Positions 9,517-61,775 of a DNA stretch of 64,000 nucleotides are shown here, piece after piece. A program made the position numbers and the translations under genes. The DNA is taken from NCBI GenBank assembly GCA_021229015.1, contig CM037777.1, positions 62,817,593 to 62,881,592 of the forward strand, given 5' to 3'. Under the pieces are notes generated by a model, which did not search any database, was not told the origin of the DNA, and worked only from the letters and a program-made list of their open reading frames with translations. How positions within the stretch are numbered: the first letter of the stretch is position 1; each line of letters opens with the position of its first letter. The stretch is from Solen grandis. Taxonomy: Eukaryota > Mollusca > Bivalvia > Adapedonta > Solenidae.

Positions 9517-9547
9517 CATCTTTTTAGTATATTAGATTATATTAATA

Positions 9548-11056
9548 TACTGGTTAAGAATAGGTAGTTTTTATAGTAGTAGGATTTTACTTAAGGGGTC
9601 TGTGGGGTCATTCAGGGGTTACAGGGTTTCCCACAGTTAGGATTTTAAAAGGGAGGTAAGGGTTGGCTAAAGGGGAGGATGGAGGCCAACATTTAATTTA
9701 AGGTTAATTTGGGAACCCGGGTTAACGGGAAAAATGGTGAAAAGGACAGTAGTTTCTTACTGTTTCTGTGTAACCAAAAGTATTTAAAGGAAGGGCAGTG
9801 GGTTTAATGGGGATCATTTTCCAAAGATTGGATTTTAACCAATTGATGGATCGCACCTGGAATGGGGATGTTTTTAAGCATCCCTGAGATCTCATCCAGT
9901 AGGGCAGTGAGGGCCATCCAGATTTACAAGGAAGCTGGAGTGAGAAGCTCAGACGGGCCCCCAGACCCAATGACAGTGGCCCAAGTAGGTAACCCCCACA
10001 GATCAGTAAGTTAAGCCTTACTTAAATCTTGGAGCAGCAGACATAAGGTTTTTCAAACTCCCCTGAGGTCAAAGGGTTTCATTTTTAAGTCGGGGGGAGG
10101 GGTTGTGACGGCTGGTTGCCGGTTATTTATGGACGCATAAATAACAGGGAAAACCCGTCCGGAGTTCATGGAAGCTGAGCGCGGCATGTGCGCAGCCAAG
10201 GAGAGGCGTTACACAAACAGGTACCCTACGTTCCAAGCTCAGTCTTGCTGAAGGTTTTGCAGTGTGTAGACGTGCTGCGTCTACGGGTTACCAATTACAT
10301 AGGCGAGACTACAGTGAAGTGTAGTTAGTTTATAGAAGCACTTATCAAATAACTTAGATAACAGTGTAAAGTAAGAGACACTTTAGTTAGAATAAACATA
10401 ATAAAATTGTTTTGCAATACACTTTGACTTTGTAGTTGTTATTTCTAGCACTACACACACTGTAGCCAGTAAATAATTACTGTAGTCAAAGGGGAAAGGA
10501 GATCCAAATTATTGCTTACATTTAGTTAACAAATCAACAGTTAATCACAGCATACAAGTATTTTCCTAGTGTAAGCACGTGTGGGACTAACAAAAATCCA
10601 TCACTGCATGTGAATTTGACTTTTATATGTATGTAAAGAAGCAGGTAGAGATAACAACAGAAGTGTTTTACATATCAATTTTTCTAAGAATGATTTCTTT
10701 TTACAAATTCCAGAGGTGTAGATTTTCAAACATCCACTAGATCTAGATCTTTAGACCTTTTTCTATTTTTGTAATTATATTCATTTGTCCTAAAGTTAAT
10801 TCATTAAAAAGCATTATTTTTAAATTAAGTATAATGCTAAACCCCCACAGAGCCAAACTTGCAGGTTTTGAGGATTTTGGTTGCAATTTAAGCAAGTAGG
10901 TTTGTACCTTTGATGTCTTTTGTTTCATTGGAACACACTGACTCTCTTTCTAAAGTACTTGACCTTGATTCTTCAAATGACAGAGTAAATTAAGCTGAAA
11001 GAAAAAAAGAAGTATTATAAAAGCCCTATTTTTTTTATTTGGAACATTTACAGTAA
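9548..11056 (+). repeat. left 1.5-kb direct repeat of the TatD retroelement
   Basis: Matches 17191-18696 over its whole length, from TACTGGTTAAGAATAGG to TTTACAGTAA. Differences are mainly one- to three-base indels in homopolymers, for example GGGAAAACCCGTCCGG against GGGAACCAGTCCGG. It ends only 19 bp before the gag ATG. It contains the shorter LTR-like segment at 10100-10455. Confidence 0.9.
10100..10455 (+). repeat. LTR-like segment inside left repeat
   Basis: Counterpart of 17734-18091. It follows a purine-rich tract (CGGGGGGAGG) and runs from GTTGTGACGG to CACTACA. The first bases (GGG for TG) are altered relative to the right copy. If this is the true 5' LTR, then 9548-10099 is 3' UTR of a truncated upstream copy and 10456-11075 is the leader of gag. 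Confidence 0.5.
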
Positions 11057-11075
11057 TTAAGTATTTATTTTGAAA

Positions 11076-12482
11076 ATGTCTCTGTTTATTAATACGGCTT
11101 CTGCAAAGCAGATTCAGAGAGCGCTCCCGAATTTCTCGGAGAGGAAAGCGGCCCTGCTTGTTGACTATAGAGACATTTTGGGTCAGCTTACTCCTGATAG
11201 CTTGCAGGTCTTCCTTAATAAAAGGCCAAGCAAAGAGTTTTTAGCTTTAATAAATTTTGCGCCGTACAAGGAATACAGTGAGGAGGAAGATAGAGATTTG
11301 GAAGCTAGATTAGCTAGCTTGGAAATTCTCTCTACCTCAGGAGAGCAGGGCGGTGCAAGATCGAAGACTACGGCTGGAGCGAAGCTCAGGTCGGTAGTTA
11401 CTAGGGTAGAACCTAATGATGAGCCTCAGCCTTTAAGAAGATAGGAGAAAAGATCTTCAAGAAAGAATCAGACTTTTAGTTCTGATGAGAGCTCAGAGCC
11501 TAGCTCCGACAGTAGCCTGGAGAAGGACTGTCGTCATAGAAGTAAAAAACATGGGCGAAACAGGAAATCCCATAAAAGCTCCAGGAAGCATGGCCATAGG
11601 CATAGGTCAAGCTCAGGGGAGAGGAGTTCAAGTTCCTCTAGTGAGTCTAGTTTATCTAGATCAAAGGGGGGTGACCCTAGAAGGCTGCCCAAAAACTTAA
11701 AGTTTACGGGGGAGAGCAGTTGGATCTCGTTTGAGGCGAGATTCATCAGCTATAAGAAAGTCCTAAAGTGGTCCCCCGAGGAATGTCGGGATTACCTGTA
11801 CTGGAGCCTAGAGGATAAGGCACTGGACTTTTTAAGTTTGGTACAAACTGGGAAGCGTCTCACTTATAAAGAGATGATGAAAAAGTTGGAGAAACGCTTT
11901 GGAACTATGGAGCTGTCAGAGACAGCTAGGACTAAGTTCCATCAGGCCCAGCAAAATCCTCAGGAGTCCTTGGAGGATTGGGCAGATAGAGTATTGACAC
12001 TCGCCACGCCGGCATTCCGAGGGATGTCTGAGAGCTTTGCTCAAAAGGAGGTAGTGTCACGATTCTGTCAGGGGTGTTTAGACAAGGAGGCAGGGAGGCA
12101 TTCCGGCCTTGCATACCCCAAGTCCATTGAGGAGGCACTAAACCACATTAAGTGCTTCCAACATTACTCTACTGCTATGAATGTGGGCGGGCGCCGACGG
12201 CAGGACCCGGTGCATATTAATGCAGTGGAGGAAAGGGACGGGAAGCTAGAAAAGATGATTGGGAGTCTGACTCAGCGCCTAGAACAGCTAGAGCAGACAA
12301 GGAGTCACCCTTCTGTGAAACCCTCCACTCCAATGAGGCCTGGTGAGAAAAATTGCTTTTTCTGTAACCAGCCAGGCCACTTCAAGCGCGAGTGTGAGAG
12401 GTACCAGGAGTGGGCATCCAAGAAAGCTTTAAACGGACAAGGGCGGGGAGCGCAGGGCAAGCACCCAGGCCCGAAGTATTAA
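11076..12482 (+). CDS. gag: Gag polyprotein with one in-frame TAG
   Basis: Structural protein of the retroelement, expected to form the capsid and bind RNA. The first ATG is at 11076. One frame runs to a TAA at 12480, interrupted only by a TAG at 11442-11444, giving 124 and about 345 codons around the stop. After the stop come a Ser/Arg/Lys/His-rich stretch (about 11445-11690), a retrotransposon gag helical domain (W at 11721, then FEARF and WSPEECRDYL), a Gln/Leu-rich segment and a CCHC knuckle (CFFCNQPGHFKREC, 12354-12395). The 3' end overlaps pol in the -1 frame, with a slippery site at 12428. The TAG may be a nonsense mutation, a readthrough stop or a consensus error. The frame is open on both sides, so it is not a frameshift. 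Confidence 0.85.
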
Positions 12483-15055
12483 TAGGCCCCCAATCACAGA
12501 ATCAGAAAGCTAAAAGAGTCCCAAATTCTCCAGGACAAAGTAAAAAGGGAGTGTTTCACTCTAATCTGCCAGTTAAGAGAATTTGTAATTCTAAAACTTC
12601 AGAAAAAGGGACTTTTAGTTCTAAATCATCCGATCAAGTAACTGACAAAGGAAAAGTTATAAAACAGGCCCCTATTCAGACCAAAAAGGCAGAGTTTAAC
12701 TCTGTGTCGTCAGAACTGATTCAGATTCAGCGCATCTGTGCTGGATCTTCATCAGTGAGAATGACAGTAGGGGGTTTTCAGGTTACGGCGCGGATAGATT
12801 CGGGTGCAGAAATCACAATACTGTCCCTAGATTGCTATACAAGGCTTAAAAAGAAGCCCAAAAAGACTAGGGATGTAGTGATGCAGATGGCGGAGAAAGA
12901 ATCCACCTTAAAGGGCTTTATTGTGGAACCAGTGCAGATGAGGCTGGGCAACCAAACATTTAAAGAGCGGGTATATGTTGCCCCAATCACAGATGATTTG
13001 CTTTTGGGTCATGATCTCTTGCATCATTTGGGGATACAGTTAGATTGGTCCACAGAAACATTGGTTTTTAATCAAGAAAGGATCCCACTGTGTACCCGAT
13101 TTAAGGAAGATCGACCCATTGTGGCCAGGGTAACTATAGCCAAACGCTTAGTGGTGCCCCCAAATTCAGCTGTGCGTGTGTCTTGCAAGCTAGATATGCA
13201 AAACTTGCCTGACTACATAATAGAGCCAAATGAAAATCATAGCCTTGAGGCCCCGAAAGTCCTCCGCAGAGCCGGTACCCAACCTGTTATGACTTTTGTC
13301 AATGCTACTGACCATTTTCAGACCCTAAAGAAAGGGCAGTTTGTGGCCAATGCCCTAGAGGTGCAGGGAGTAGAGACCAAGCCAGAAAAGACAGCAAGAA
13401 TAGAAACTACACAGCCAGTAGTGAGAAAAGTGGAGTCTAAAGTTAGCTCCCAGGACAAAGGATCTGGCTTGGTACCAGAGCACTTGGTACAAGTATATAA
13501 GGACTCCCTGCAGCACCTAGATACTGATCAGCGGGCGAAATTAGCCAAACTTCTATGTGAGTTTGAGGATGTATTTGCCAAAGATGAGTTCGATTTAGGC
13601 AGTTTTACTACCATCGAACACACTATAGATACAGATGGGGCAAGGCCAATCAAACAGCGGATGCGCAAGACCCCACAATGTTTTGTGGGTGAAGAAGAGG
13701 CCCATTTAAAGAAGATGATGGACGCGGGTGTGATCCAAGAGTCTGTTTCGGACTGGGCATCAGCACCGGTCTTGATTCGGAAGCGTGATGGTTCAGTTCG
13801 TTGGTGTGTTGACTATCGGGCTTTAAATGATGTCACCATCAAGGATACTTTTCCGCTTCCACTTATTGAGGATTGCTTAGACACGCTAGCAGGCAGCAGC
13901 TGGTTTTCCAAGCTAGACGCTAATTCAGCGTACTGGCAAGTAAAGATAGCAAAACCAGATAGAAAGAAGACAGCATTCCTCACTAAATATGGGCTCTTCG
14001 AACATGTAAGAATGGGTTTCGGACTTACAAATGCGCCCGCAACATTCTCAAGGGTAGTCAACCTTATTTTAAGGGGATTGAATTGGAAAACAGTCTTGGC
14101 ATTCCTAGATGATATCCTGGTAATGGGTGCCAGTTTTGAGGATCATCTTGGGAATTTGACCAAGGCTCTAAAGAGGTTTCGAACTCACGGCATGAAGCTC
14201 AAACCTAAGAAATGCCAGTTCTTCCAACAAAAGGTAGACTTCTTGGGAAGAATTGTCAGTAAGGATGAGATAGCCATGGCAGATAAGGATACAGAAACAG
14301 TATCAAATTGGCCTACTCCCACTTGTTCTAAGGATGTAGAGAGGTTCTTGGGTTTTGCCAATTATCACCGAAATTTTGTGAAAGATTTCGCTAATGTGGC
14401 ACAGCCTCTCTACGGTCTTACAGGAAAGAATGAGTTTCGCTGGGGTAAGCCTCAGCAGGAAGCTTTTAGTAGCCTAAAGCAGCTGCTCATTACCCCGCCG
14501 GTATTGGCTCTACCTAACAACACTGATCCATTTATTTTGGACACAGACGCGTCCGATTTAGCTGTTGGAGGTGTTTTGAGTCAAGTGCAGGGTGGGGTAG
14601 AAAAGGTGATATCGTATTGCAGTTTTACACTCACCTCGGAGCAGCGAAACTATTGTACAACCAGGAAAGAGCTTTTAGCTATAGTCAGGTTAACCAGGCA
14701 GTATAAACACTACCTTTTGGGTAAAGTTTTCACGGTGAGGACTGATCATTCCAGTCTGACGTGGCTGCTACGGTTTAAAGAACCTCAGGGACAATTGGCT
14801 AGGTGGATCGAGGAGTTGTCTCAGTACCACATGATAGTCAAACACCGGGCGGGGGCTAAGCATGAAAATGCTGACGCACTTTCTCGGTTGCTAGATGGAT
14901 TAACCCCGTGCCCCGAGTATATAGCGGGAATCTCCCCGGAAAGTTTGCCATGTGCAGGCTGCACATACTGCAAACGGGCAGATGAACGCTGGGGTGAGTT
15001 TTCAAGGTCAGTGGATGAAGCTGTTGCTTTAAAGGTCTCGGTAGGAGAGACTTGA
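12398..15055 (+). CDS. pol: Pol polyprotein: protease, reverse transcriptase, RNase H
   Basis: Frame -1 to gag, open from 12398 and reached by frameshifting at 12428. Counting from 12410 (881 codons), the pepsin-like protease motif DSGAEIT starts at residue 130 (nt 12797). The reverse transcriptase follows with YRALNDVT, LDANSAYWQV (Asp503), GFGLTNAPATFSRV and the catalytic FLDDIL (Asp567-568). RNase H has DTDASDLAVGGVL (Asp713), RKELLAIV, RTDHSSLTW and ENADALSRL. All catalytic acids seen are intact, which is the Ty3/Gypsy pattern. After RNase H about 60 residues remain, with a C-x2-C-x2-C motif (CAGCTYC) resembling the linker that precedes integrase in related elements, then TGA. Integrase itself is absent. 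Confidence 0.93.
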   Translation, partial: EVPGVGIQESFKRTRAGSAGQAPRPEVLIGPQSQNQKAKRVPNSPGQSKKGVFHSNLPVKRICNSKTSEKGTFSSKSSDQVTDKGKVIKQAPIQTKKAEFNSVSSELIQIQRICAGSSSVRMTVGGFQVTARIDSGAEITILSLDCYTRLKKKPKKTRDVVMQMAEKESTLKGFIVEPVQMRLGNQTFKERVYVAPITDDLLLGHDLLHHLGIQLDWSTETLVFNQERIPLCTRFKEDRPIVARVTIAKRLVVPPNSAVRVSCKLDMQNLPDYIIEPNENHSLEAPKVLRRAGTQPVMTFVNATDHFQTLKKGQFVANALEVQGVETKPEKTARIETTQPVVRKVESKVSSQDKGSGLVPEHLVQVYKDSLQHLDTDQRAKLAKLLCEFEDVFAKDEFDLGSFTTIEHTIDTDGARPIKQRMRKTPQCFVGEEEAHLKKMMDAGVIQESVSDWASAPVLIRKRDGSVRWCVDYRALNDVTIKDTFPLPLIEDCLDTLAGSSWFSKLDANSAYWQVKIAKPDRKKTAFLTKYGLFEHVRMGFGLTNAPATFSRVVNLILRGLNWKTVLAFLDDILVMGASFEDHLGNLTKALKRFRTHGMKLKPKKCQFFQQKVDFLGRIVSKDEIAMADKDTETVSNWPTPTCSKDVERFLGFANYHRNFVKDFANVAQPLYGLTGKNEFRWGKPQQEAFSSLKQLLITPPVLALPNNTDPFILDTDASDLAVGGVLSQVQGGVEKVISYCSFTLTSEQRNYCTTRKELLAIVRLTRQYKHYLLGKVFTVRTDHSSLTWLLRFKEPQGQLARWIEELSQYHMIVKHRAGAKHENADALSRLLDGLTPCPEYIAGISPESLPCAGCTYCKRADERWGEFSRSVDEAVALKVSVGET
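12428..12434 (+). promoter_or_regulatory. TTTAAAC -1 ribosomal frameshift site
   Basis: In the gag frame the codons are GCT TTA AAC, so the heptamer has the exact X XXY YYZ phase needed for -1 slippage into pol (TTT AAA). It lies inside the gag/pol overlap, 46 bp before the gag stop. A GC-rich stretch starting about 3 bp downstream (GGGCGGGG, GGGC, GCACCC, GGCCC) could form a stimulatory stem or pseudoknot. UUUAAAC is one of the most efficient known slippery sequences. Function here is inferred. Confidence 0.8.
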
Positions 15056-15848
15056 GAGGAAAGTTTGCAACGCGGCTACTGATGAGCCGACGTTGGAACT
15101 TGACCCAGAGGAGTCCATGGTAGTGACTCCGGGCTCTTCAATTCTGGGTTCACCTCAGAAGTCCACAGGGTCATCAACTCCGAGGGCCGTTACTCCTACC
15201 AAGGAGGCCTCCGTTTCACCACTTCCTGCAAAGGAAAGCACGGATGAGGCAGCTGTCGTGAGTTCAGGTCAGGCTAAGAAGCCCGCCCGGAGAAGACGGA
15301 GACCCCGTAGGCAACGGTTCCAACAGGAGATTTTTAGTCTCGGAGGATCTGAGGCCAGAACGGGAAGGACTTGTAGTCCAAGGAAGGTTTCCGCATCCCC
15401 CAAGACGAAGACGTTTCGTCCAGCCGAGGGGACACCATTGCCAACTAAAGGGATTTTTAGGTCCAAAGAAGGTATGGTGAATAGAAAGAGGACGGGTAGT
15501 CAAAAGAGTGCGCCAGTACCTACCAAGAGGAGTAAAAACCCAGCAGAGACACGTACTGTTACAGAGACCGCCAAAGGATCGCTACAACTGAGCGTTAACT
15601 GTGTGAAAGCCAAGGATATCCGGAAGGCTTCGCACCGGGAAAGGCAGTGTCTCGTTCCAGGATGTACGGAAGCAAACAAGTATGCCAAACCACATCATGC
15701 ATTTGAGCACCACATTCCGCGCATCTTTGATGAGGTCTACCTGCTGATGACAAGGAGGTACTGGAGTGCCGGAAGAGGGCCCTCACCCAAGTTACCCATT
15801 GGCTGCTGGGAAGACCAGGGACGGCGGATGAACTTGTACGCTATGTAG
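15045..15848 (+). CDS. basic protein with zinc-finger-like motif, 3' of pol
   Basis: Frame +1 to pol; it is open from 15045, overlaps the pol end by 11 bp, and its first ATG is at 15117. The N-terminal half is Ser/Thr/Pro-rich, followed by Lys/Arg-rich patches (KPARRRRRPRRQR) typical of nucleic-acid binding or nuclear localisation. Near the C terminus lies C-x4-C (CLVPGC, Cys codons at 15648 and 15663), then a His-rich segment (KPHHAFEHHIPRIF), which looks like a C2H2-type finger. After about 15740 this frame stops resembling anything, whereas the frame that becomes TatD opens at 15734 and gives a sensible continuation. I infer a one-base insertion or two-base deletion there. Originally this probably formed one protein with TatD, perhaps fused to Pol. 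I recognise no named family. Confidence 0.6.
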   Translation, partial: ERLERKVCNAATDEPTLELDPEESMVVTPGSSILGSPQKSTGSSTPRAVTPTKEASVSPLPAKESTDEAAVVSSGQAKKPARRRRRPRRQRFQQEIFSLGGSEARTGRTCSPRKVSASPKTKTFRPAEGTPLPTKGIFRSKEGMVNRKRTGSQKSAPVPTKRSKNPAETRTVTETAKGSLQLSVNCVKAKDIRKASHRERQCLVPGCTEANKYAKPHHAFEHHIPRIFDEVYLLMTRRYWSAGRGPSPKLPIGCWEDQGRRMNLYAM

Positions 15849-16930
15849 GGATGCAGAAGCAATTCTCCAAGATTGACAACAGCATCATCTCGGAGACCCA
15901 GGACCGCCATATGAGGACTTTTTGTTCTCATATTGGTAGAGAAGCCCCTACAGTGTTCGAGCTCTTCCCAGTCAACTCGATAGGGTCGATACTCCACTGG
16001 AAGGCACTAGTATTAATAGTGGCCACATTGGACAAGGACCAGCAGGAGTATTGGCGTGAGGCGTTCCCAGCACCTGAGGGCAAGATAACAATACCCACCC
16101 CAAAGGCGTACGACGCACATTTCCACCTGGACAGGCTCCGGAAGAGGTCTCACAACAAAAGTGACACCCCCTTACAGACAATTCTGGACCAGTCTCCTGT
16201 GTCACAGGAGAAGAAGGTGGATCTGGTGGGATGTTGTGCCAGCTTTTGTGATCCCAGCACATGGCCAAGCAACCAGGAAGTCCAAGAGATGCCGGAAGGA
16301 ATAGCCGTGGCCATTGGACTTCATCCACGTCATGCCAGTCGGGGATACAAAAGGACATCCAAGGAGGTGGGAAGATTAGCAGACCTTTTGAAACAGGACC
16401 GTGTGGTGGCACTAGGTGAGATAGGGATAGACCACACCGAACCAGTCCACCAATGGCATGAACAGCTTAGTATCCTGGATGTGGTTTTACCCCTAGTAAG
16501 ACCAGACCAAGCTGTCATCTTCCACTGTAGAGGGATGTCAGATGATTGCGGAACAGAAGCCTATCTGTTGCTGCTCCGTTGGGCCAGGAAGCACCTGCAC
16601 CGTAAGCACCCCGTCTATCTCCATTGTTTCAGTGGAGATGAGTATGTATACCGGAGGTGGTCCACAGCGTTTGCCAACTGCTACTTTTGCTTCACCAAGA
16701 ATACCCAGACTTTTAGTCCACCACAACTGGAAGCTGTGAAGGCGGTGCCAGACAACCGACTGCTGATTGAGACGGACGCACCTTACTTCCCACCAAGGGG
16801 GAGTGAGTGGTCGACGCCGAACCATGTTTATCAGACAGCAGAAGGTTTGGCCCACATCAGGGGAGTGAGAACAGAAGGCATTCTGGCGGTGACAACTGAC
16901 AATGCCCGCCAGCTGTTCGAGAAACGATAG
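15734..16930 (+). CDS. TatD-family metal-dependent nuclease of the retroelement
   Basis: TatD hydrolases are TIM-barrel, divalent-metal enzymes that act as 3'-5' exonucleases or endonucleases on DNA and, in some cases, RNA. The frame is open from 15734; the first ATG is at 15851 (359 codons to TAG), but the in-frame sequence before it looks coding. Numbered from that ATG, the expected ligands are all present: H90 and H92 in DAHFHLD, E190 in ALGEIGID, H225 in IFHCRG, H258 in YLHCFSG and D309 in ETDAPYFPP. VAIGLHPRH is also typical. The core is about 270 residues, the normal TatD size, with an N-terminal extension. Position between RNase H and the 3' repeat and the same strand as gag-pol argue that it travels with the element. 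It is closest in flavour to animal TATDN2-like proteins. The role, whether cDNA processing, target nicking or host defence, is unknown. Confidence 0.9.
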   Translation, partial: GLPADDKEVLECRKRALTQVTHWLLGRPGTADELVRYVGMQKQFSKIDNSIISETQDRHMRTFCSHIGREAPTVFELFPVNSIGSILHWKALVLIVATLDKDQQEYWREAFPAPEGKITIPTPKAYDAHFHLDRLRKRSHNKSDTPLQTILDQSPVSQEKKVDLVGCCASFCDPSTWPSNQEVQEMPEGIAVAIGLHPRHASRGYKRTSKEVGRLADLLKQDRVVALGEIGIDHTEPVHQWHEQLSILDVVLPLVRPDQAVIFHCRGMSDDCGTEAYLLLLRWARKHLHRKHPVYLHCFSGDEYVYRRWSTAFANCYFCFTKNTQTFSPPQLEAVKAVPDNRLLIETDAPYFPPRGSEWSTPNHVYQTAEGLAHIRGVRTEGILAVTTDNARQLFEKR

Positions 16931-16943
16931 AGGGTGTTTGGAA

Positions 16944-17010
16944 GGGGAGAAAGGGGCTTTTAGCCAAAAAGTGGGGAGAAAGGGGCTTTCAGCCAAAAAA
17001 GTGGGGATAA
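16944..17010 (+). repeat. 29-30-bp short tandem repeat in the 3' UTR
   Basis: The unit GGGGAGAAAGGGGCTTT followed by YAGCCAAAAA occurs at 16944 and 16973, with a partial third at 17003. It is purine-rich and just after the TatD stop. It may be a secondary polypurine feature or simple slippage. Confidence 0.8.
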
Positions 17011-17719
17011 AGGCCTAATAAGGAAAGTCATTTAAGTACTGGTTTTTATATTCCAGGAAAGGCCTGGTATTTTGCCAGGATAGGTCAGACTTAGGTTAAA
17101 AAAGGGACATTAGGCCTATTTATTTTTTTTTTTAGATTAAAGGTAAAGGGATTATTGTTGTTTTTTTCAGAAAGTGGTAATTGCCAGATGTACTGGTTAA
17201 GAATAGGTAGTTTTTATAGTAGTAGGATTTTACTTAAGGGGTCTGTGGGGTCATTCAGGGGTTACAGGGTTCCACAGTTAGGATATTAAAGGAGGTAAGG
17301 GTTGGCTAAAGGGGAGGATGGAGGCCAACATTTAATTTAAGGTTAATTTGGGAACCCTGGTTAACAGGAAAGGTGAAAAGGACAGTAGTTTCTTACTGTT
17401 CTGTGTAACCAAAAGTATTTAAAGGAAGGGCAGTGGGTAATGGGGATCAGTTCCAAAGATTGGATTTTAACCAATTGATGGATCCGCACCTGGAATGGGG
17501 ATGTTTTTAAGCATCCCTGAGATCTCATCCAGTAGGGCAGTGAGGGCCATCCAGAGTTCACAAGGAAGCTGGAGTGAGAAGCTCAGACAGGCCCCAGACC
17601 CAATGACAGTGGCCCAAGTAGGTAACCCCCACAGATCAGGTAAGTTAAGCCTTACTTAAATCTTGGAGCAGCAGACATAAGGTTTTTCAAACTCCCCTGA
17701 GGTCAAAGGCTTTCATTTT

Positions 17720-17733
17720 TAAGTCGGGGGGAG
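17720..17733 (+). promoter_or_regulatory. polypurine tract candidate
   Basis: AAGTCGGGGGGAG immediately precedes TGTTGTGACGG. A G-rich purine run abutting a TG start is the usual plus-strand primer site of Gypsy elements. Confidence 0.6.
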
Positions 17734-18091
17734 TGTTGTGACGGCTGGTTGCCGGTTATTTATGGACGCATAAATAACAGGGAACCAGTCCGGAGTTCAT
17801 GGAAGCTGAGCGCGTGCATGTGCGCAGCCAAGGAGAGGCGTACACAAACAGGTACCCTCAGCGTTCCAAGCTCAGTCTTGCTGAAGGTTTTGCAGTGTGT
17901 AGACGTGCTGCGTCTACGGGTTACCAATTACATAGGCGAGACTACAGTGAAGTGTAGTTAGTTTATAGAAGCACTTATCAGTAACTTAGATAACCAGTGT
18001 AAAGTAAGAGACACTTTAGTTAGAATAAACATAATAAAATGTGTTTGCAATACACTTTGACTTTGTAGTTTGTTATATTTCTAGCACTACA
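17734..18091 (+). repeat. LTR-like segment (358 bp) inside right repeat
   Basis: Runs from TGTTGTGACGG to GCACTACA. The ends are near-inverted (TGTTGTG against TGTAGTG), start TG and end CA, and follow a polypurine tract. Inside are an AT-rich box (GGTTATTTATGG with CATAAATAAC) and a poly(A) signal AATAAA at 18024. This is the size and layout of a normal Gypsy LTR. If correct, the leader-like sequence 18092-18696 after it belongs to a second, truncated copy in tandem. No tRNA primer-binding site starting TGG is seen after it. Confidence 0.5.
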
Positions 18092-18696
18092 CACACTGTA
18101 GCCAGTAAATAACTTACTGTAGTCAAAGAGAAAGGAAGATCCAAATTATTGCTTACATTTAAGTTAACAAATACAACAGTTAATCACAGCATACATGTAT
18201 TTTCCTAGTGTAAGCACGTGTGGGACTAACAAAAATCCATCACTGCATGTGAATTTGACTTTTATATGTATGTAAAAGAAGCAGGTAGAGATAACAACAG
18301 AAGTGTTTACATATCAATTTTTCTAAGAATTATTTCTTTTACAATTCCAGAGGTGGAGATTTTCATCATCCACTAGATCTAGATCTATAGACCTTTTTCT
18401 ATTTTTGTAATTATATTCATCTGTCTAATTTAATTCATTAAAAAGCATTATTTTTATTAAGTCATAATGCTACCTCCACAGAGCCAAACTTGCAGGTTTT
18501 GAGGATTTTGGTTGCAATTTAAGCAATAGGTTTGTACCTTTGATGTCTTTTGTTTCATTGGAACACACTGACTCTCTCTTCTAAAGTACTTGGCCTTGAT
18601 TTCTTCAACTGACAGAGCTATATGTGAAGCTGAAAGTAAAGAAGATAGTATTATTAAATGCCATACTTTTTTCTATTTAGGAATAGTTTACAGTAA

Positions 18697-19270: not shown

Positions 19271-20117
19271 AACTAGAGCTATCACTGAAGGTGATTAATA
19301 CCCCCGCAAAATACTTTAATGCAGGAGAAGCCAGACTTCAAGCAGAGCATAGATAAGAACCTGTATACATAGTATATTGGTTGTGATATTAATAAGTAAA
19401 GTTTTTATTTAAAGTTGATAGAGAGTCAATAATGGTTGTTTGTCACAGTAGTTTAAAAATATAAGGTTACAGTTCTTGAACACTGCACTTCTCCTAGTTG
19501 CCATCTGTTTACATTTTAAGTTTCAAGTATATACCATGTATAATATTCGAGTTATGTTCAGGACAAGAAAAACAAGGAAAAGTAACAAAGGGCAATAACT
19601 CTGTAATTACTTAGATAGAGTTATGGTTCTTGTGCACTGCACTTCCTCTCATTGTGCTTGACCATTGTATGAAATTGTTTTGAAATCCAACCAGTAGTTT
19701 ACAAGTTATACTCTGGACAAGGAAAAGTAACAAAGGGCAATAACTCTGTAATTACTCTAGATAGAGTTATGGTTCTTGTGCACTGCACTTCCTCTCATTG
19801 TGCTTGACCATTGTATGAAATTGTTTTGAAATCCAATCAGTACTTTACAAGTTATACTCTGGACAAGGAAAAAATACAAAGGGCAATAACTGCATAATAA
19901 GTCAAGATGGAGTTATGGTTCTTGTGCACTGCATTCCTCTCAATGTGCTTGATCATTGCATGAAGTTGTATTGAATTCCAACTTGTGGTTTTCAAGTTAT
20001 GCTCCGGACAAGGAAAATGCAACGGACCGCTGGACCAACCGACCGACCAACCGACCGACCGACCGACCACCGGGTGACTCCTATATACCCCCCTAAACTT
20101 TGTTTCGGGGGTATAAT
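19271..20117 (-). repeat. pearl-like element, TACCCCC family
   Basis: The same family as 4530-4930 in the opposite orientation: the hairpin head (TATACCCCCCTAAAC with GTTTCGGGGGTATA) is at the right, beside a (CCGA)n tract at 20037-20070. The core has units with GGACAAGGAAAA at 19715, 19861 and 20005, a period of about 145 bp, and a partial earlier unit near 19561. Confidence 0.8.
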
Positions 20118-42694: not shown

Positions 42695-44690
42695 AGTTCC
42701 TGATCGCCACGAAGACATGAATATGTCAGTTGCCGCTGTAGAAAAACCTTGACTTCTGAATGATTCCCGGACACTAAACAAGCAGTCATGACTAGATTCT
42801 TTGACAGAGGATGCACAACATCCATGTGTGGTAGATAAAGTATTTTCTTTGATTTTGGAAGAATTATTGGAGCATGAATCAGTAGCCTCATTAGTTTCGT
42901 AAACCAAATCTGTGTCGGCCATAGAGGAGCTATAATCAGACACTTGGCTCTGTCTTCTGTGACTTTCTGCAGACATCGCCCCATCAGACTGAAAGGTGGA
43001 AAAACATAAGCACAATTAAATACTTTCCAATCAATAGAAAATGCATCTACAAAAGAGGCATTCGGATCAGGCTTCCATGACCAGAACTGAGGCACTTTGG
43101 CATTTAATCTCGATGCAAATAAATCAATATCTGGTTTTCCAAATTTCCTAGTCAATTCATCAAAAACTGAATGGTCCAGTGACCATTCAATCCTATCATT
43201 GAACTTCCTGGATGGGGAGTCTGCTAAATTTAATTTTCCAGCAATATGTGCACATGTGACCCAGATATTCCTCTCAATACACCAGAACCAAATATCCTTA
43301 GACACTTCATTACATTTTTCTGACTTAATACCTCCCATGTTTGAAATATAAGAAACTGCTGTTGAACTATCTGAGAGGATTTGCACGTGTTTGCCAATAA
43401 TTTTAGCTGAGAGAGATTTAAGTGCCAGCATTATAGCCTTAAGCTCAAGAACGTTAACATGACCATCCTTCTCCTGATCAGTCCATCGACCACCTATTTT
43501 TAATTCGTCAAGAACAGCCCCCCATCCTGTTAAAGAAGCATCAGTGTGAATAGATATATCAGGATTGCCGTGACTGATGAGTCTATATTGATCATCTATG
43601 TTCTTGATCCACCAATTTAGGTCACTTTCCATGCTACAGTGTATCACAAATCAGCATTTTTTGTTCAAAATCCCCATGATTTAGTGCCAAAGCGACAGAT
43701 TTGCTTTTTTCCAAATTCCTATAATATAGCTGGCCAAACTGAACAGCTGAGAAAGTAGCAACTAATAACCCTATAACTTTGGCAACCTGTCGAATTTTTG
43801 CTGATCCTAAAGATTGCAGACTTAAACATTCTGACTTAATTTTCTCTTTCTTTTCTTGTGGCAGAAACACCTTCATCTGTTTGAATCTATAATATTATCA
43901 AAAAAAAAAATTCTTTTGGTTGGTATCATGACAGATCTTTCTAAATTAACAATGAAACCAACTCTCTCCATAAGAGTTTTTGTATCAGCAATGTTTTCAG
44001 AGCATTGTGAAAACGTATCTCCACATAGCAGGCTATCATCTATGAAGCCGCTATTTATATGACCTTCACTACGCAATTTAGCAAAAATTGGTTTAAGCAA
44101 TTTGGCAAACATCCTAGGCATGCATGCAAGACAATTCGGAGATGCCGTAAATTGATAAAAAGTATTTTCCCAATAAAACCTAAAATATTTTCGCTGTTCT
44201 TCAGCAATACTGACAGAATAGTAAGCGTGCCTTAAATCAATTGATCCCATGAATGTATCTTTGGAAATAAGGTTAAGTGTTTTCTCAAATGTATCTATTT
44301 TAAAATGTTGATAGGGAATACATTCGTTTATTTTATTTTTTTTCAAATTTAAAATCATGCGATATTCCCCATTCTTTTTTGGTCTTACAAAGACAGGTGA
44401 AATGAACTGGCCAGTTTCATACTGAACCTTTTTAATGACCTCCATTTCTAGGAGTTTTTCTATCTCTTTAGCAATTATTCCTGAGTCCCGGCTATTGAAA
44501 TGGGATTGGCATGGTACATTTTCGTTTTCAACTGAATAGAATTTCTTAAAAAATTCAATATTGAAATTTCCCACCATGTCTAAAATTTTGGGATTATTTG
44601 TAATCTGCCATTCATGAACAAAATGTTTAAGTCTACCAGCTTTAAATACAACAGTGCTTACCTTATTTTCTATTGTTTGAACTTTCGGCC
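42695..44690 (-). pseudogene. DIRS-like pol: RT and RNase H, frameshifted
   Basis: Reading minus strand from about 44690: a VFKAGRLKHF leader, then RT blocks SPVFVRPKKNGEYRMIL, GSIDLRHAYYSVSI and FRFYW, with the catalytic box GFIDDSLLCGDTFSQC (near 44040). A frame break falls in a poly-A run near 43900. The next frame continues with KVFLPQEKKEKI, and a second break near 43640 leads into RNase H (HTDASLTGWGAVL, DSSTAVSYI, ADSPSR). After that comes the DIRS-type domain (DIDLFASRLN, FWSWKPDPNASFVDAF, YVFPPFSLMGRCLQK). The SIDLRHAYYSV and FIDDSLL motifs separate this from Gypsy RTs. Both breaks are single-base type. Confidence 0.88.
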
Positions 44691-57239: not shown

Positions 57240-58462
57240 TTTTAAACCGAAACTTAAATGATCGTTCTTTACACAAAATTGATAACGGATACCTCCCGAG
57301 CTCGTCATAAATAGCGGCGTTCGGCGTTGTTTCTTAAGACTAAGAACATATTTACGGAACCTTAAATGCAATTTATCAACCTTTTTTAGATTATAGACCC
57401 CCAAACTTCTGACCCATATAACAAAATAGGGACTTCCATACTATCAAACAATTGTAGCATTGTCTTAAAATACAATTTAGTTCTGTCAAACAAACCGTAA
57501 GCTCTCCGTGCTTGATCGTGTAAATTTTAAAAAAATCTTTCAAATTTCATTTAACTGCATCTGTGAAAGTACCGAGGTGATTAAATTTTATACCTTAGTA
57601 AACAAAATTGTCAACGATCTCAACGGACTCGCCATTCAAAAAAAATGTACATTTCTGTTACTTTTTTCTTTTCAAAAACACAGACTTTCGTTTTATTCAC
57701 ATTAATTTTATGCCCCATTTGACAGAGTAATGATATATGCTATCTATCAGGGATTGCAAACTGACTTTATCTGTAGTAAATAAAACAATGTCGTCCGAAA
57801 ATTAAAATAAGATATTTGGACAATAACTCAAGATCTTTGTCTGTAAATGAGTTTAAATCTTAAGACTTTCAACAATATCATTCACAAAAAAATAGAAATA
57901 AAATAGGCGATAACGGCTCACCTTGTTTAAAGCCAATTGTGAAATCAAAGAACTCAGATATATTAGTATTATTAGACAATTTGACACATGACTTGACACT
58001 TTTATATATGTTTTTTTTTATCATACTGACCATTTTACAGCATATGCCTGAATGTATAAGTTTATACCACAAAGCGTCACGGTTAACGGTATAGAACGCA
58101 CGCTGATAATCAATAAATATACACCAAAGTTTTGACTGCTTTGATAATACATACTGTATAATAGAATGGAGAATAAATATTGCATCAGCCGTAGAACGAC
58201 CATCACGAAAACCGAACTGGCTATCTGTGAATACATTATTTTCGCACCATACGTTAAGTCTATTTCTCAACAATAATGAAAGTAACATTTACCAACGTAA
58301 TACCTCTATAATTTGCAGGATCTGTTTTCGCACCTTTTTTCGGCTTCATTATTATAAAGATCGCAACTCTTTTGTCTTTCAGTGAAGATATTACATTTTC
58401 AATCTCCTCTACAGTAAATTCTATGTCAAGTTCATTAATAATCAAATCAGGGGTAAAATCAT
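57240..58462 (-). pseudogene. LINE reverse transcriptase, decayed
   Basis: On the minus strand, from about 58460: a conserved segment before the RT (TVEEIENVISSLKDKR), then DPANYRGITL, a frame break near 58275, then RT fingers and palm with FTDSQFGFRDGRSTADAIF and CIFIDYQRAF (normally Phe-Asp, here Tyr), GFKQGEPLSPILF, a frame break near 57880, and the catalytic FSDD at 57801-57790. Degenerate thumb-like sequence with several stops continues to about 57240. The ITL / SQFGFR / GEPLSP set is typical of non-LTR retrotransposons of the I/Jockey/CR1 assemblage; the clade is not resolved. The 5' part ends at the pearl-like fragment at 58470. Confidence 0.88.
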
Positions 58463-58469
58463 TATCATC

Positions 58470-58886
58470 ATCGGTTGGTCGGTCCAGCGGTCCGTTGCAT
58501 TTTCCTTGTCCGGAGTATAACTTGAAAACCACAAGTTGGAATTCAATACAACTTCATGCAATGATCAAGCACATGGAGAGGAAGTGCAGTGCACAAGAAC
58601 CATAACTCCATCTTGACTTATTACAGAGTTATTGCCCTTTGTTACTTTTCCTTGTCCGGAGCATAACTTGAAAAGTACAAGTTGGATTTCAAAACAATTT
58701 CACACAATGGTCAACCACAATATGAGGAAGTGCAGTGCACAAGAACCATAACTCTATCTAGAGTAATTAAAGAGTTATTGCCCTTTGTTACTTTTCCTTG
58801 TCCATAGCATAACTTGAAAAAGACTGGTTGGAATTCAAAACAATTTCATACAATTGTCAACCACAATAAGAGGAAGTGCAGTGCAC
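58470..58886 (+). repeat. pearl-like element, TACCCCC family, head-truncated
   Basis: Starts in the GGTCGGTCC tract without the hairpin head. Three core units with TTTTCCTTGTCCGGAG or variants (58498, 58645 and 58791, period about 147) match 19271-20117 in reverse. It stops abruptly at GCAGTGCAC, directly beside the TatD fragment. Confidence 0.85.
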
Positions 58887-58907: not shown

Positions 58908-59516
58908 TCACTCCACCGGGCCCGGGGGGCGACGATGGAGATACAGGCGTTCCGCATTGGCGGTAGCCTGTCGCAGCACTTCCTCCCAGGGCCTCTTGAT
59001 GACGCTGGCGACAGCTGCTGCTGTTAATCCCAGAAGTCCTGGTGTGGACCGCCGGTACCCAGCTGGTGGGAAATATGGACTATCCGTCTCCAGGAGTAGC
59101 CTGGTTGAGTCCATATTCCTAACGGCTGCCCGCTGGTCTGGGTGCTCCAACCTATCGATGAGGGAGGTGAACCCGAAGTATGTGTTCGGGAAGGCCTTGA
59201 TCCACTCTTCCATGAGTTTCCAACTCCCCGTATAACAGTGGAGATGGATAAGGCGATCTTTCCCCACAGAAGAATGGGCCCTCAGCTGAAACAGCAACGT
59301 CAACAGGGTGGCGTCGAATCCATCCTGCTGACCTCTACCGTGGAGTACAAGGATGTGATCTGGGCCAAGAAGCTCGAGGAGGTAGTCCAGCTTCCACATC
59401 TGCTCTGCCCAGGTTGCTGGGGGCAGAGTGTAGTCAAGCCCAACTTCTCCCAATCCGGCGACCAGGGGATCAGCGAGCAGAGTCTTCGGGCTCGCTGGGT
59501 TCTTCCAGCTTGCTCC
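58908..59516 (-). CDS. second TatD-family nuclease, C-terminal part at a gap
   Basis: Minus-strand open frame running from the gap edge at 59516 to TGA at 58910-58908, about 200 codons. The visible metal ligands are Glu in GLGEVGLDY (59447-59445), His in LVLHGRG, His in HLHCYTG and Asp in ETDSPYFPP. The N-terminal His-x-His would lie in the gap. It aligns in layout with the TatD of the retroelement at 15734-16930 (ETD.PYFPP, then a G..STP loop and an AEGLAH/AAAVAS-like helix) but is clearly divergent. No gag or pol is seen on its 3' side; a pearl-like fragment begins 22 bp away. GC content is far above the flanks. It could be part of another such element, a retrocopy or a host TATDN2-like exon. 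Confidence 0.85.
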   Translation of the reverse strand, partial: GASWKNPASPKTLLADPLVAGLGEVGLDYTLPPATWAEQMWKLDYLLELLGPDHILVLHGRGQQDGFDATLLTLLFQLRAHSSVGKDRLIHLHCYTGSWKLMEEWIKAFPNTYFGFTSLIDRLEHPDQRAAVRNMDSTRLLLETDSPYFPPAGYRRSTPGLLGLTAAAVASVIKRPWEEVLRQATANAERLYLHRRPPGPVE

Positions 59517-59616
59517 NNNNNNNNNNNNNNNNNNNNNNNNNNNNNNNNNNNNNNNNNNNNNNNNNNNNNNNNNNNNNNNNNNNNNNNNNNNNNNNNNNNN
59601 NNNNNNNNNNNNNNNN
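59517..59616. other. assembly gap (100 N)
   Basis: Exactly 100 N, so size unknown. It separates the TatD fragment (minus strand) from the DUF7869-like gene (plus strand); the missing 5' parts of both probably lie inside. Confidence 0.99.
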
Positions 59617-61775
59617 CATGCATGCTCTATATTTAGCACAGCAACCTTTGCTTAACTCCTCAGAGTCAGACACTGATGTCTCTGTTTCTGACTCCAACTC
59701 TGTGGAAGGCATAAGCTCAAGTGATATTAGTGATTTTGATACCAGTGATGTGAGAGGTGAGGGTAGGAATTATGCTAGGGATGATGGTAGGAATGATACA
59801 GGGGGATGAGGGTAAGAAGATGAAGGGATGGGGGAAGTGAGGGGGAATTATGCTAGGGTTGAGGGTAGGAATGATGACATGGTTGAGGGTAGGAATGATG
59901 ACATGGTTGAGGGTAGGAATGATGAGAGAGGTGAGAATAGGAATGAGAGGGATGAAGTGAGGAGTGGTGATAGACTTGATGGTAGGAATGATGACAGAGA
60001 TGTTGATATGGGTGATAAAGAACATGCAAATGAAAATCAAAATATGGGGATTTATGATGTTGAAAAGGGTGACAATAACGCCTTAGAAGCAGATAATTAG
60101 AGGCAGAGGTAGAAAGAGAGTCCGTAACACTGCAAATTGGAAACGTAACATAATGAAATCAAGAAGAAATGAAGGGAAGAGCTACATGACAAAGAGTGGG
60201 GTCATTAGACAATCAAGGCTTATGAAAGGTGGCTGTGGGATTGGGTGCAGGTATAAATGCCATGAAAATTTTCTGACTCTGATAGGCATAGGCTTTTTCA
60301 CTGTTTATGGAAAATTGGTGATCTAACAAAACAAAGAAATTTTGTCTCAAAATATGTAATTCAAAAACAAAAGCAAAACAAATCAGTCAATTTATCCAGG
60401 AGGCAAAATTCCATCCAGTGGCCTTTGCCAAAAATGAAAGAAAATGGAACCTCCTCTACTGAAAAGGTTTGTAAAACCTTCTTCTTGCAAACTTTAGATG
60501 TAAGTCAAAGATTTGTCTCAACAGTACATATGAAAAACCATTTCGGGTATTTGTGATGGTGAACAAAGAGGGAAGCACACTTCTAGACCAAACAAGACTA
60601 GCCCAGAACAAGTTAAGCAAGTGCGAGCCCACATTGAGTCTTTTAAACCTGTGGATAGTCATTATTGTCGGAAGGACTCAAAAAAGCAGTATTTGCCAAG
60701 TGAACTTAATATTACTAAAATGTACCACTTGTACAAGTCAGAGGTTGAATCCCCAGTACAGATCCAAATATACAGGAAAATATTCAACACGGAATATAAC
60801 ATCGCCTTTCATAAGCCTTTGAAAGACCAGTGTGATCTTTGTTCATCTTATAAGAATGCAAACACTGAACAAAAACAAAACATGGAAAATGAGTATCAAA
60901 ACCTTGTTAGTAAAATGAAACTATGTGACAAAGAAAATTCTAGTATATCTAAGTCAATTTGTGCTGCATGTTTTGATTTAGAGCAGATTCATCTAACACC
61001 CCATAGTTTTGAATCCAGCCTATACTATAAGCGCCGTCTTAGCACTTTTAATTTTACCATCTATGATTTAGCCAAGAAAGATGGCTACTGCTATGTCTGG
61101 AATGAAACCATTGCGAAAAGAGGCGGGTCAGAAATAAATCCTTCATTGCTAAAAAAAAGCAAGGAAGGGTTCAAAGATTTTGTTTTTTATAGTGATAATT
61201 GTCAAGGTCAAAACAAAAATCGGTATTATGTGACCATGATGTGGTACTGTCTTAAGAAATTTTGCAACATCAACAGTATCACTCACAGATACTTAGAAAA
61301 AGGTCACACATTCAATGAGAATGACTCTATACATGCGTCAGTAGAAAATGTAAGTAAAAACATGCAAATATTTAGCACATCACAGTGGGCTGCCACAATC
61401 AGAGCTGCTAGGTACATGTATAGAAAGCCATATATTGTAAAAGAAATGTCACTGTCTGATTTCTTCAATTTTAAAGCTTTGTCAGAAAATCTCAAAAATT
61501 TTGAATACAACTTTGACAATGAAAAAAAATACTGGGGAAAAATTAGAAGCTTTCACCTATCAGCATCACTTGGTGATGTATTTGAGTACAAAACAGAACA
61601 TAATGGCCAAGCAAAACAGGTTGATCTTTTTAAGAGATCTAGGCAAAGGGTGAAGATTGATCAAATGAAACTGGTTCAATTGAGAACAGAACAAATACCC
61701 ATCTCTAGAGAGAAGTATCATGACCTTATAAATGGTGAATGGAGAAATGGTGCCTTTAAATCAGACCACAACTAA
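59617..61775 (+). pseudogene. DUF7869-like transposon-associated protein, broken 5' half
   Basis: An intronless gene whose 3' part is a 384-codon open frame (60621-61775) and whose 5' part survives in pieces. The 5' part has an acidic Ser/Asp-rich start, 24-bp repeats giving RNDDMVEG (near 59870-59935), a WKRNIMKSRRN segment near 60140, and VCKTFFLQTLDVSQRF near 60470. Frame breaks fall near 59805, 60100 and 60520. The intact part has HIESF, SHYCRK, YRKIFNTEYNIAFHKP, CDLCSSYKN and CAAC, then YSDNCQGQNKN (Asp192 of this frame) and KGHTFNENDSIH (His229, Asp235, His238). The D-N-C-x-G-Q-N and GHT..E.D..H motifs match a family I know from insects and cnidarians as DUF7869, suspected to be RNase H-fold transposase-like. 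Exact function is unknown. Confidence 0.75.

What the first reader, a model, noticed from the sequence alone, without database searches (positions are those of the whole stretch)
9548..18696. Gypsy-type retroelement with a TatD nuclease where integrase should be
The plus strand reads gag, protease-RT-RNase H, a basic zinc-finger-like ORF and a TatD hydrolase with all expected metal ligands, all enclosed by 1.5-kb direct repeats. No DDE integrase or tyrosine recombinase is visible. LTR elements need an integration enzyme; TatD proteins are metal-dependent nucleases with no known integration role. The nuclease may replace integrase (for example by nicking), help process cDNA, or work against host nucleases. 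Intact active-site residues, despite lesions in neighbouring frames, hint at recent selection. I know of no described retroelement class with this layout.
Basis: partly seen in the sequence, partly recalled or inferred. Interest (0 to 1): 0.93.

Follow-up and report, generated by a model that had tools for sequence, protein, structure and literature searches.

The report
Gypsy retroelement with extra TatD nuclease
A jumping gene that seemed to carry a DNA-cutting enzyme instead of the usual integration enzyme turns out to be a damaged copy: its sister copies carry both, so the real surprise is a group of retrotransposons that have kept an extra TatD-type nuclease gene whose job is unknown.

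Summary
The window holds gag, protease-RT-RNase H and a zinc-finger/TatD frame, and no integrase. But this copy is an internal deletion. In its own (unnamed, 1.32-Gb) genome I read 11 other places of the family: 10 of 11 have integrase and a PHD finger upstream of TatD. About 2.54 kb (integrase, PHD, start of ORF3) is missing here. The other copy without integrase shares the junction and looks like part of the same insertion. The 1.5-kb repeats are not LTRs; the LTR is about 285 bp with 4-bp target duplications. So TatD does not replace integrase. What remains is a Gypsy clade with a third ORF (N-terminal domain, zinc finger, helical domain, TatD) after a normal pol. Of 51 integrase matches at 45% identity or more, 48 have TatD downstream on the same strand; of 41 at 36-41%, none. 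TatD keeps its metal ligands; in another subfamily it is under purifying selection (omega 0.14-0.21). Related proteins occur in ten mollusc genera. Eight searches of an open-paper library found no report of such elements. Function is inferred: an accessory nuclease, perhaps acting on RNA-DNA intermediates.

The parts
9545..11052 (+). left copy of the 1.5-kb direct repeat (not an LTR): part of 3'UTR, LTR, then presumed flanking host DNA
10102..10385 (+). LTR copy (about 285 bp) inside the left repeat
   Evidence: blastn with L107 and sister LTRs
10386..11043 (+). block read as host flank, also found after the 3' LTR (18,019-18,692); no match in the sister copies fetched up to then
   Evidence: only L081, which is the window's own locus, matches
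11076..12482 (+). gag (weak HhH motif, Retrotrans_gag, CCHC zinc knuckle), in-frame stop at 11,442
   Evidence: sister L095 gag open over 473 codons
12410..15055 (+). pol remainder: aspartic protease, RT, RNase H, linker; integrase and PHD finger deleted
15051..15060 (+). deletion junction: about 2.54 kb present in sister L095 (5,567-8,102) is missing; same junction in L107
15060..15734 (+). ORF3, first part: basic region and zinc finger (N-terminal domain deleted)
   Evidence: tblastn with full-length ORF3 proteins
15737..16930 (+). ORF3, second part after a frameshift: helical domain and TatD nuclease (Pfam TatD 16,112-16,918)
   Evidence: fold from a relative
16931..17733 (+). 3' untranslated region ending in a purine run (GGGGGGAG) next to the 3' LTR
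17734..18018 (+). 3' LTR, about 285 bp (TGTTGTG...CACTTTA)
18019..18022 (+). target-site duplication GTTA, the same four bases as left of the 5' LTR of L107
   Evidence: read by eye
58908..59516 (-). second, different ORF3-TatD fragment (38% identical), cut by an assembly gap

Best explanation
The window copy is a deletion derivative of a Ty3/Gypsy LTR retrotransposon whose fuller relatives read LTR - gag - pol (protease, RT, RNase H, integrase, PHD finger) - ORF3 (N-terminal domain, zinc finger, helical domain, TatD nuclease) - LTR. Shown: relatives carry both integrase, with its D,D(35)E residues, and TatD; the window copy lost about 2.54 kb covering integrase, PHD finger and the start of ORF3; ORF3 marks the closer half of the Gypsy matches in this genome and not the more distant ones, in subfamilies whose TatD parts are only about 33% identical; TatD keeps its metal ligands and, where it could be tested, evolves under purifying selection. 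Inferred: the relatives integrate in the ordinary way with their DDE integrase; this copy, if it was deleted before integration, was moved by integrase made by sister copies. Inferred, and much less sure (about 0.4): ORF3 is an accessory nuclease that travels with the element's RNA or cDNA through its zinc finger and basic region, and trims RNA-DNA or single-strand ends during cDNA maturation or at the insertion site, as human TATDN2 cuts the RNA of RNA-DNA hybrids.
For: Sister copies: IN+PHD upstream of TatD in 10 of 11 other family places read; in one of the ten (L097) only the end of IN shows beyond a gap. Window aligns to L095 in two blocks at 99.4 and 99.6% with 2.54 kb skipped. Genome-wide rows: 41 of 46 pol matches at >=50% identity have TatD downstream on the same strand within 9 kb, 0 of 7 at 40-43%; 48 of 51 IN matches at >=45% have TatD within 6 kb downstream, 0 of 41 at 36-41%; 37 of 41 pol-TatD pairs have IN between; 34 of 41 long TatD matches have IN within 6 kb upstream. 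Chance expectation per IN row is about 3e-4 (116 TatD matches in 1.324 Gb). Three other subfamilies read nearly in full have the same order, with Pfam rve, H2C2, PHD and TatD, and IN residues D..D(35)E, also in L095, 4 of 4. LTR pairs 100% identical in 3 of 6; 4-bp target duplications in 5 of 6, the sixth not readable. TatD omega 0.14-0.21 in 9 comparisons with one older copy and 0.19 in one more pair. Ligands kept at all six positions in 19 of 20 copies with the whole domain; a truncated 21st keeps the four it covers. AlphaFold model of a family protein (P0210): mean pLDDT 88; top Foldseek hits are TatD nucleases, human TATDN3 and TATDN1 at ranks 8 and 13. A Mercenaria gene model joins this RNase H type to TatD (P0240).
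Against: Nothing measured shows that ORF3 is expressed or cuts nucleic acid. Within the window's own family the copies are too alike for a selection test (pN/pS 0.81 on 12 variable codons); among other young pairs omega scatters from 0.03 to 1.9. Of 41 long TatD matches, 13 had no listed pol row upstream, 9 of these have an IN row, 4 have neither. Two pol-TatD pairs besides this one and L107 lack a listed IN row, though their spacing (3.3 kb) is normal and only the best candidates were scored. In an RT tree the four TatD-bearing types of this genome do not form a group of their own among database pol proteins; this fits an old gain only if those database elements carry TatD too, which I could not see. 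In 6 of the 7 complete integrases of the window's family the frame is closed off from RNase H (560-645 codons; one copy has 1,677), so how this family expresses IN is unclear.
Confidence: 0.9

Rival explanations
1. TatD took over the role of integrase in a new class of LTR elements.
For: This copy and its near-duplicate have RNase H followed directly by ORF3.
Against: 10 of 11 other places of the same family and three divergent subfamilies keep integrase upstream of TatD; 37 of 41 pairs genome-wide. The two copies without it share one junction and matching insertion-site bases, so they probably count as one event.
Confidence: 0.02
2. TatD is a host gene fragment picked up by this single copy (transduction) or a separate mobile element inserted into it.
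For: Host TatD genes exist (recalled); TatD-like proteins of this family are often annotated as TATDN2 in databases.
Against: ORF3-TatD follows IN on the same strand at 1.3-3.3 kb in 48 of 51 IN matches at >=45%, lies inside the LTRs, and forms one clade apart from 11 reference TatD proteins (support 99/98).
Confidence: 0.02
3. ORF3 is a counter-defence or host-handling factor and not a replication enzyme: for instance it destroys host nucleic acids or R-loops that trigger silencing, or it opens chromatin sites together with the PHD finger.
For: Other Gypsy elements carry accessory genes for dealings with the host (PMC11952523, passages); TatD diverges much faster (about 33% identity between subfamilies) than RT (66-74%), as expected for a factor in conflict with the host.
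Against: Catalytic residues are kept while the rest diverges; no host target is known. Fast divergence is also expected of any poorly constrained accessory protein.
Confidence: 0.25
4. The window copy's lack of integrase is an assembly artefact and the real locus has it.
For: Both copies without integrase lie beside 100-base gaps and in error-prone sequence; the left flank of the window copy is rearranged.
Against: The same junction is read at two places separated by gaps (140 of 140 bases identical); the pol and TatD frames next to it are open.
Confidence: 0.08

Closest known systems
Ty3/Gypsy LTR retrotransposons with integrase and a PHD finger (database proteins such as P0090, P0092, P0130)
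   Same: Same PR-RT-RH-IN order, PHD finger in P0090 and P0092; RT-RNase H 73-75% identical to these three; the window element lies in a 97%-supported set of ten rows with them.
   Different: Those database proteins end with pol, so whether a TatD ORF follows is not visible; in this genome it does. This copy lacks IN and PHD.
Gypsy elements with an extra gene outside gag-pol: env of errantiviruses (recalled), short ORFs of the MDG1 group (PMC11952523: search listing and passages seen)
   Same: Accessory ORF in a Gypsy element, conserved by selection.
   Different: Those act in cell entry or cell-to-cell transfer, and the MDG1 ORFs lie upstream of gag; ORF3 lies downstream of pol and has a metal-dependent nuclease fold and a zinc finger.
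TatD nuclease family; human TATDN1/2/3, E. coli TatD and YcfH
   Same: Pfam TatD, metal ligands, TatD fold. TATDN2 is described as a Mg-dependent, structure-specific RNA nuclease that resolves R-loops (PMC10707325, passages seen).
   Different: ORF3 TatDs form their own clade with an added N-terminal domain, zinc finger and helical domain, and are carried by a retrotransposon.
Non-autonomous LTR retrotransposons with internal deletions (recalled)
   Same: The window copy keeps an LTR and part of the coding region and has lost a part needed for integration.
   Different: Probably one insertion only; no sign was seen that the deleted form multiplied.

Membership tests
Ty3/Gypsy LTR retrotransposon | LTRs with short target-site duplications | tested here: met
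   LTRs 98-100% alike in 6 of 6 pairs (one over 249 bp only); 4-bp duplications in 5 of 6 sister copies, read by eye, the sixth not readable
Ty3/Gypsy LTR retrotransposon | pol order protease-RT-RNase H-integrase | tested here: met
   met in sister places and in L111, L112, L113; not met in the window copy itself, by deletion
Ty3/Gypsy LTR retrotransposon | purine tract before the 3' LTR and tRNA primer site after the 5' LTR | tested here: inconclusive
   GGGGGGAG precedes the 3' LTR and TGGTGTCAGAA begins one base after the 5' LTR in sister copies; no tRNA was matched
integrase-less retroelement class | absence of integrase across copies | tested here: not met
   37 of 41 pol-TatD pairs have IN between
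TatD nuclease family | TatD domain and metal ligands (HxH, E, H, H, D) | tested here: met
   Pfam 3.8e-38; all six positions in 19 of 20 complete domains
TatD nuclease family | TatD (TIM-barrel) fold | tested here: met
   model of the relative P0210, pLDDT 88; Foldseek E 6.5e-14 to an S. aureus TatD nuclease; the window protein itself was not modelled
TatD nuclease family | nuclease activity | not testable with these tools
   no enzyme assay possible

The most novel reading that the evidence does not exclude
A large, old clade of mollusc Gypsy retrotransposons depends on an element-encoded TatD nuclease as a further replication enzyme beside protease, RT-RNase H and integrase: it processes RNA-DNA intermediates or cDNA ends before the DDE integrase joins them, so that loss of either enzyme makes a copy non-autonomous.
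Probability: 0.25. Interest if true: 0.82.

Novelty: new variant of a known kind. Interest (0 to 1): 0.62.

Why it matters
LTR retrotransposons are thought to need only gag and pol for copying and insertion (recalled). Here a second nuclease gene has been kept by a clade whose members include insertions with identical LTRs (3 of 6 pairs), that is, very recent jumps. Many proteins annotated in mollusc genomes as 'TATDN2' or 'TatD family' are likely to be pieces of these elements (inference), which inflates gene counts; the 'TATDN2' reported among non-Hox ORFs of the giant squid Hox cluster (PMC6962438, passage seen) may be one. The question what a TatD enzyme does for a retroelement is directly testable with purified protein.

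Tried and rejected
Rejected: TatD as integrase substitute; TatD as a stray host gene; 1.5-kb LTRs. The candidate target duplications listed for the 1.5-kb repeats were about as many as chance gives (my estimate) and were dropped once the true LTR was known.

Led nowhere: five scans of viral contigs found no relative; in the one scan of genome contigs the 80 loci kept, of 500 encoding a relative, all bear bacterial titles; selection test within the window's own family, too few differences; equal contig length (9,947) of pol protein P0125 and TatD protein P0213 hints at linkage in another species but may be coincidence, and their closeness to L113 did not settle it. In one search the RNase H and pol-tail queries were cut out of frame by my error, so their 91% identities mean nothing; nucleotide alignment replaced them. 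In one search, 21 reference proteins were chosen but only 11 entered the tree (those with the start motif). The first-pass ligand patterns were too strict and were replaced by alignment positions. For the selection test I fetched only copies listed without stops. A Pfam TatD search of the genome, to find the host's own TatD genes, did not complete.
Full report
What is in the window. Between 11,076 and 16,930 on the plus strand lie gag, a pol frame with aspartic protease, RT and RNase H (12,410-15,055), and a frame with a TatD nuclease domain. Full-length relatives found later show that this ORF and the TatD ORF are one protein, ORF3, broken by a frameshift near 15,735: relatives match up to 15,734 in one frame and from 15,737 in the next. 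No integrase is found in the window with seven pol proteins as queries, all with an integrase domain listed, or with the sister copies' own integrase at DNA or protein level; a few chance-level matches (E 2 or more) were listed.

Relatives in protein databases. The named proteins at the top of the TatD search are from molluscs: Pecten, Mizuhopecten, Mactra, Ylistrum, Nucella, Argopecten, Pinctada. An alignment search, in which 7,992 candidates were scored, added Mya, Mercenaria and Dreissena and clusters (90% identity) of up to 182 member sequences. One of its best hits, P0210, bears the name of a bacterial symbiont bin (Candidatus Thiodiazotropha); I take it for host DNA in that bin, an inference. 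The longest proteins share an N-terminal domain, a basic linker, a zinc finger, a helical domain and TatD. One Mercenaria gene model, P0240, joins a piece of the same RNase H type to TatD. The pol search listed the best 120 of 770 hits: Gypsy proteins, many with integrase and a PHD finger. In an RT-RNase H tree the window element falls in a set of ten rows (97% SH-aLRT); of the nine others six have an integrase domain listed and three do not.

The window's own genome. The search tool holds the assembly: 1.324 Gb in 811 contigs, unnamed; the window is C1:62,817,593-62,881,592. From the protein relatives I infer a mollusc. The TatD query gave 116 matches, nine of them complete and 99-100% identical in the listing. 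I read the surroundings of eleven other places of this family. In 10 of 11, integrase and PHD finger are found upstream of ORF3; in one of the ten (L097) only the end of integrase is visible beyond a gap. In 9 of the 10 the ORF3 N-terminal domain that the window copy lacks is also matched; in L109 it is not. The window aligns with L095 in two blocks, 11,044-15,054 (99.4%) and 15,051-16,950 (99.6%), skipping about 2.54 kb of L095 that holds the linker end, integrase, PHD finger and ORF3 start.

The one sister without integrase. L107, about 92 kb away on the same chromosome, has the same junction (140 of 140 bases identical) and 99.5% identity over 5.9 kb. The four bases left of its 5' LTR, GTTA, are the four bases right of the window's 3' LTR, and its 3' untranslated region stops at a gap close to where the window's left repeat begins. 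The simplest reading is one insertion of a deleted element, later tandemly duplicated or split by the assembly. The '1.5-kb repeats' then consist of 3' untranslated region, LTR and about 660 bp of host flank. The true LTR is about 285 bp (TGTTGTG...CACTTTA), identical between the two ends in 3 of 6 sister copies and 98.3-99.7% in the other three (one of these, L101, over 249 bp only). Target duplications of 4 bp, read by eye from the printed flanks, are seen in 5 of 6; the sixth (L101) has a cut 5' LTR. So the family jumped recently, with integrase and ORF3 on board.

How general is the layout. All counts here are rows of search listings, and one element can give two rows. Of 46 pol matches at 50% identity or more, 41 have a TatD match on the same strand within 9 kb downstream; of seven at 40-43%, none. 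With integrase as query, 48 of 51 matches at 45% or more have TatD within 6 kb downstream, 0 of 41 at 36-41%. In 37 of 41 pol-TatD pairs an integrase match lies between; the exceptions are the window copy, L107, and two pairs with normal spacing. Seen from TatD, 34 of 41 long matches (780 bp or more) have integrase within 6 kb upstream; four have neither an integrase nor a pol row. Only the best candidates were scored, so these are lower bounds. Three divergent subfamilies of which 9 kb each was read (L111, L112, L113; RT 70, 74 and 66% identical to the window's, TatD about 33%) have gag, pol with integrase and PHD finger, and an ORF3 frame of 787, 803 and 928 codons. Their integrases and that of L095 keep the D,D(35)E residues, 4 of 4. 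A lineage outside (L130, pol 43%) has RT and integrase followed by C2H2 fingers and no TatD in the 7.6 kb read. Against a simple picture: in an RT tree the four TatD-bearing types do not group by themselves among database pol proteins, so either those elements carry TatD too or TatD was gained or lost more than once.

Selection and structure of TatD. One older copy (L129) against nine copies of its subfamily gives dS 0.21-0.25 and omega 0.14-0.21; a second pair (L114, L117) gives 0.19. These comparisons share copies and are not independent, I had fetched only copies listed without stops, and among very young pairs omega scatters from 0.03 to 1.9. In the window's own family the copies are too young to test: pN/pS 0.81 on 12 variable codons. 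Of 20 copies with the complete domain, 19 keep all six metal-ligand positions; L117 has Y for one H; a truncated copy keeps the four it covers. The ORF3 TatDs form one clade apart from 11 reference TatD proteins (99/98), with other species' proteins interleaved, which favours one old acquisition. The model of family protein P0210 (492 residues, 49 aligned sequences) has mean pLDDT 88; its best structural matches are bacterial TatD nucleases, with human TATDN3 and TATDN1 at ranks 8 and 13. In the viral library one protein matched below E 0.001, from Yasminevirus.

How it most likely works. Insertion in the clade is by the ordinary integrase (inferred from its intact residues and the 4-bp duplications). 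The window copy cannot make integrase; if the deletion arose during reverse transcription it was inserted by integrase from a sister copy; the junction shows about one base of homology by eye, which does not tell this from a later genomic deletion. The role of ORF3 is open. [quoted passage not shown] the primary paper was not held). A nuclease of that kind bound to element RNA or cDNA by a zinc finger could remove RNA from hybrids or trim ends. I put this at about 0.4, a host-directed role at 0.25.

Literature. 'TatD' with 'retrotransposon' gave 14 papers, with 'transposable element' 27 (25 listed), with 'bivalve' 5; TATDN/transposable element/mollusc with two of three terms 704 (20 listed); TATDN2/oyster 2; PHD finger/Gypsy 5; TATDN2/R-loop 1; accessory ORF/Gypsy 11. 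None of those listed describes a TatD ORF in a retrotransposon, judged from titles, abstract starts and, for two papers, passages. Word searches inside three papers on mollusc and annelid transposons found no mention of PHD or nuclease. The library lacks most subscription journals, so an earlier description cannot be excluded.

Noticed in passing
window 58,908-59,516 (-): A second TatD fragment, 38% identical to the first and closer to P0214-P0217, cut by the gap at 59,517-59,616: another subfamily of the same kind in one window.
   Followed up: partly
window 19,572-19,903 and about 58,600-58,850: A tandem repeat of about 146 bp seems by eye to occur at both places, directly after the second TatD fragment; from memory it recalls the 'pearl' repeats of bivalves.
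   Followed up: no
window 57,878-58,553 (-) and 43,876-44,463 (-): By eye remains of a LINE-like RT, and a weak (about 20-22%) match to the Gypsy RT.
   Followed up: no
window 60,534-61,775 (+): Open frame of 413 codons of unknown identity.
   Followed up: no
L095 5,615, 5,672, 5,768; L101: In L095, whose LTRs are identical, pol is interrupted by three stops between RNase H and integrase, whereas the copy at L101 has one open frame of 1,677 codons; how young copies with stops supply integrase is unclear.
   Followed up: no
L112:90-2495 (-): ORF3 of this subfamily carries an extra CCHC zinc knuckle (E 1.5e-8) in its N-terminal half.
   Followed up: no
L089 (C11:5,684,001-5,694,000): An inverted ORF3-TatD fragment interrupts RNase H of another copy, an odd nested arrangement.
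   Followed up: no
gag of window, L095 and L111: gag begins with a weak helix-hairpin-helix motif (Pfam HHH_3 below its cut-off in the window and L095; by eye in L111).
   Followed up: no
L130 (C1:2,225,500-2,233,100): A related Gypsy lineage ends pol with what look like C2H2 zinc fingers in place of the PHD finger.
   Followed up: partly
database proteins P0107, P0134, P0136, P0150, P0210: Pol and TatD pieces of this kind are filed under bacterial names (Sedimenticola, Thiodiazotropha, Desulfobacterales bins), which looks like host DNA in symbiont or sediment bins.
   Followed up: no
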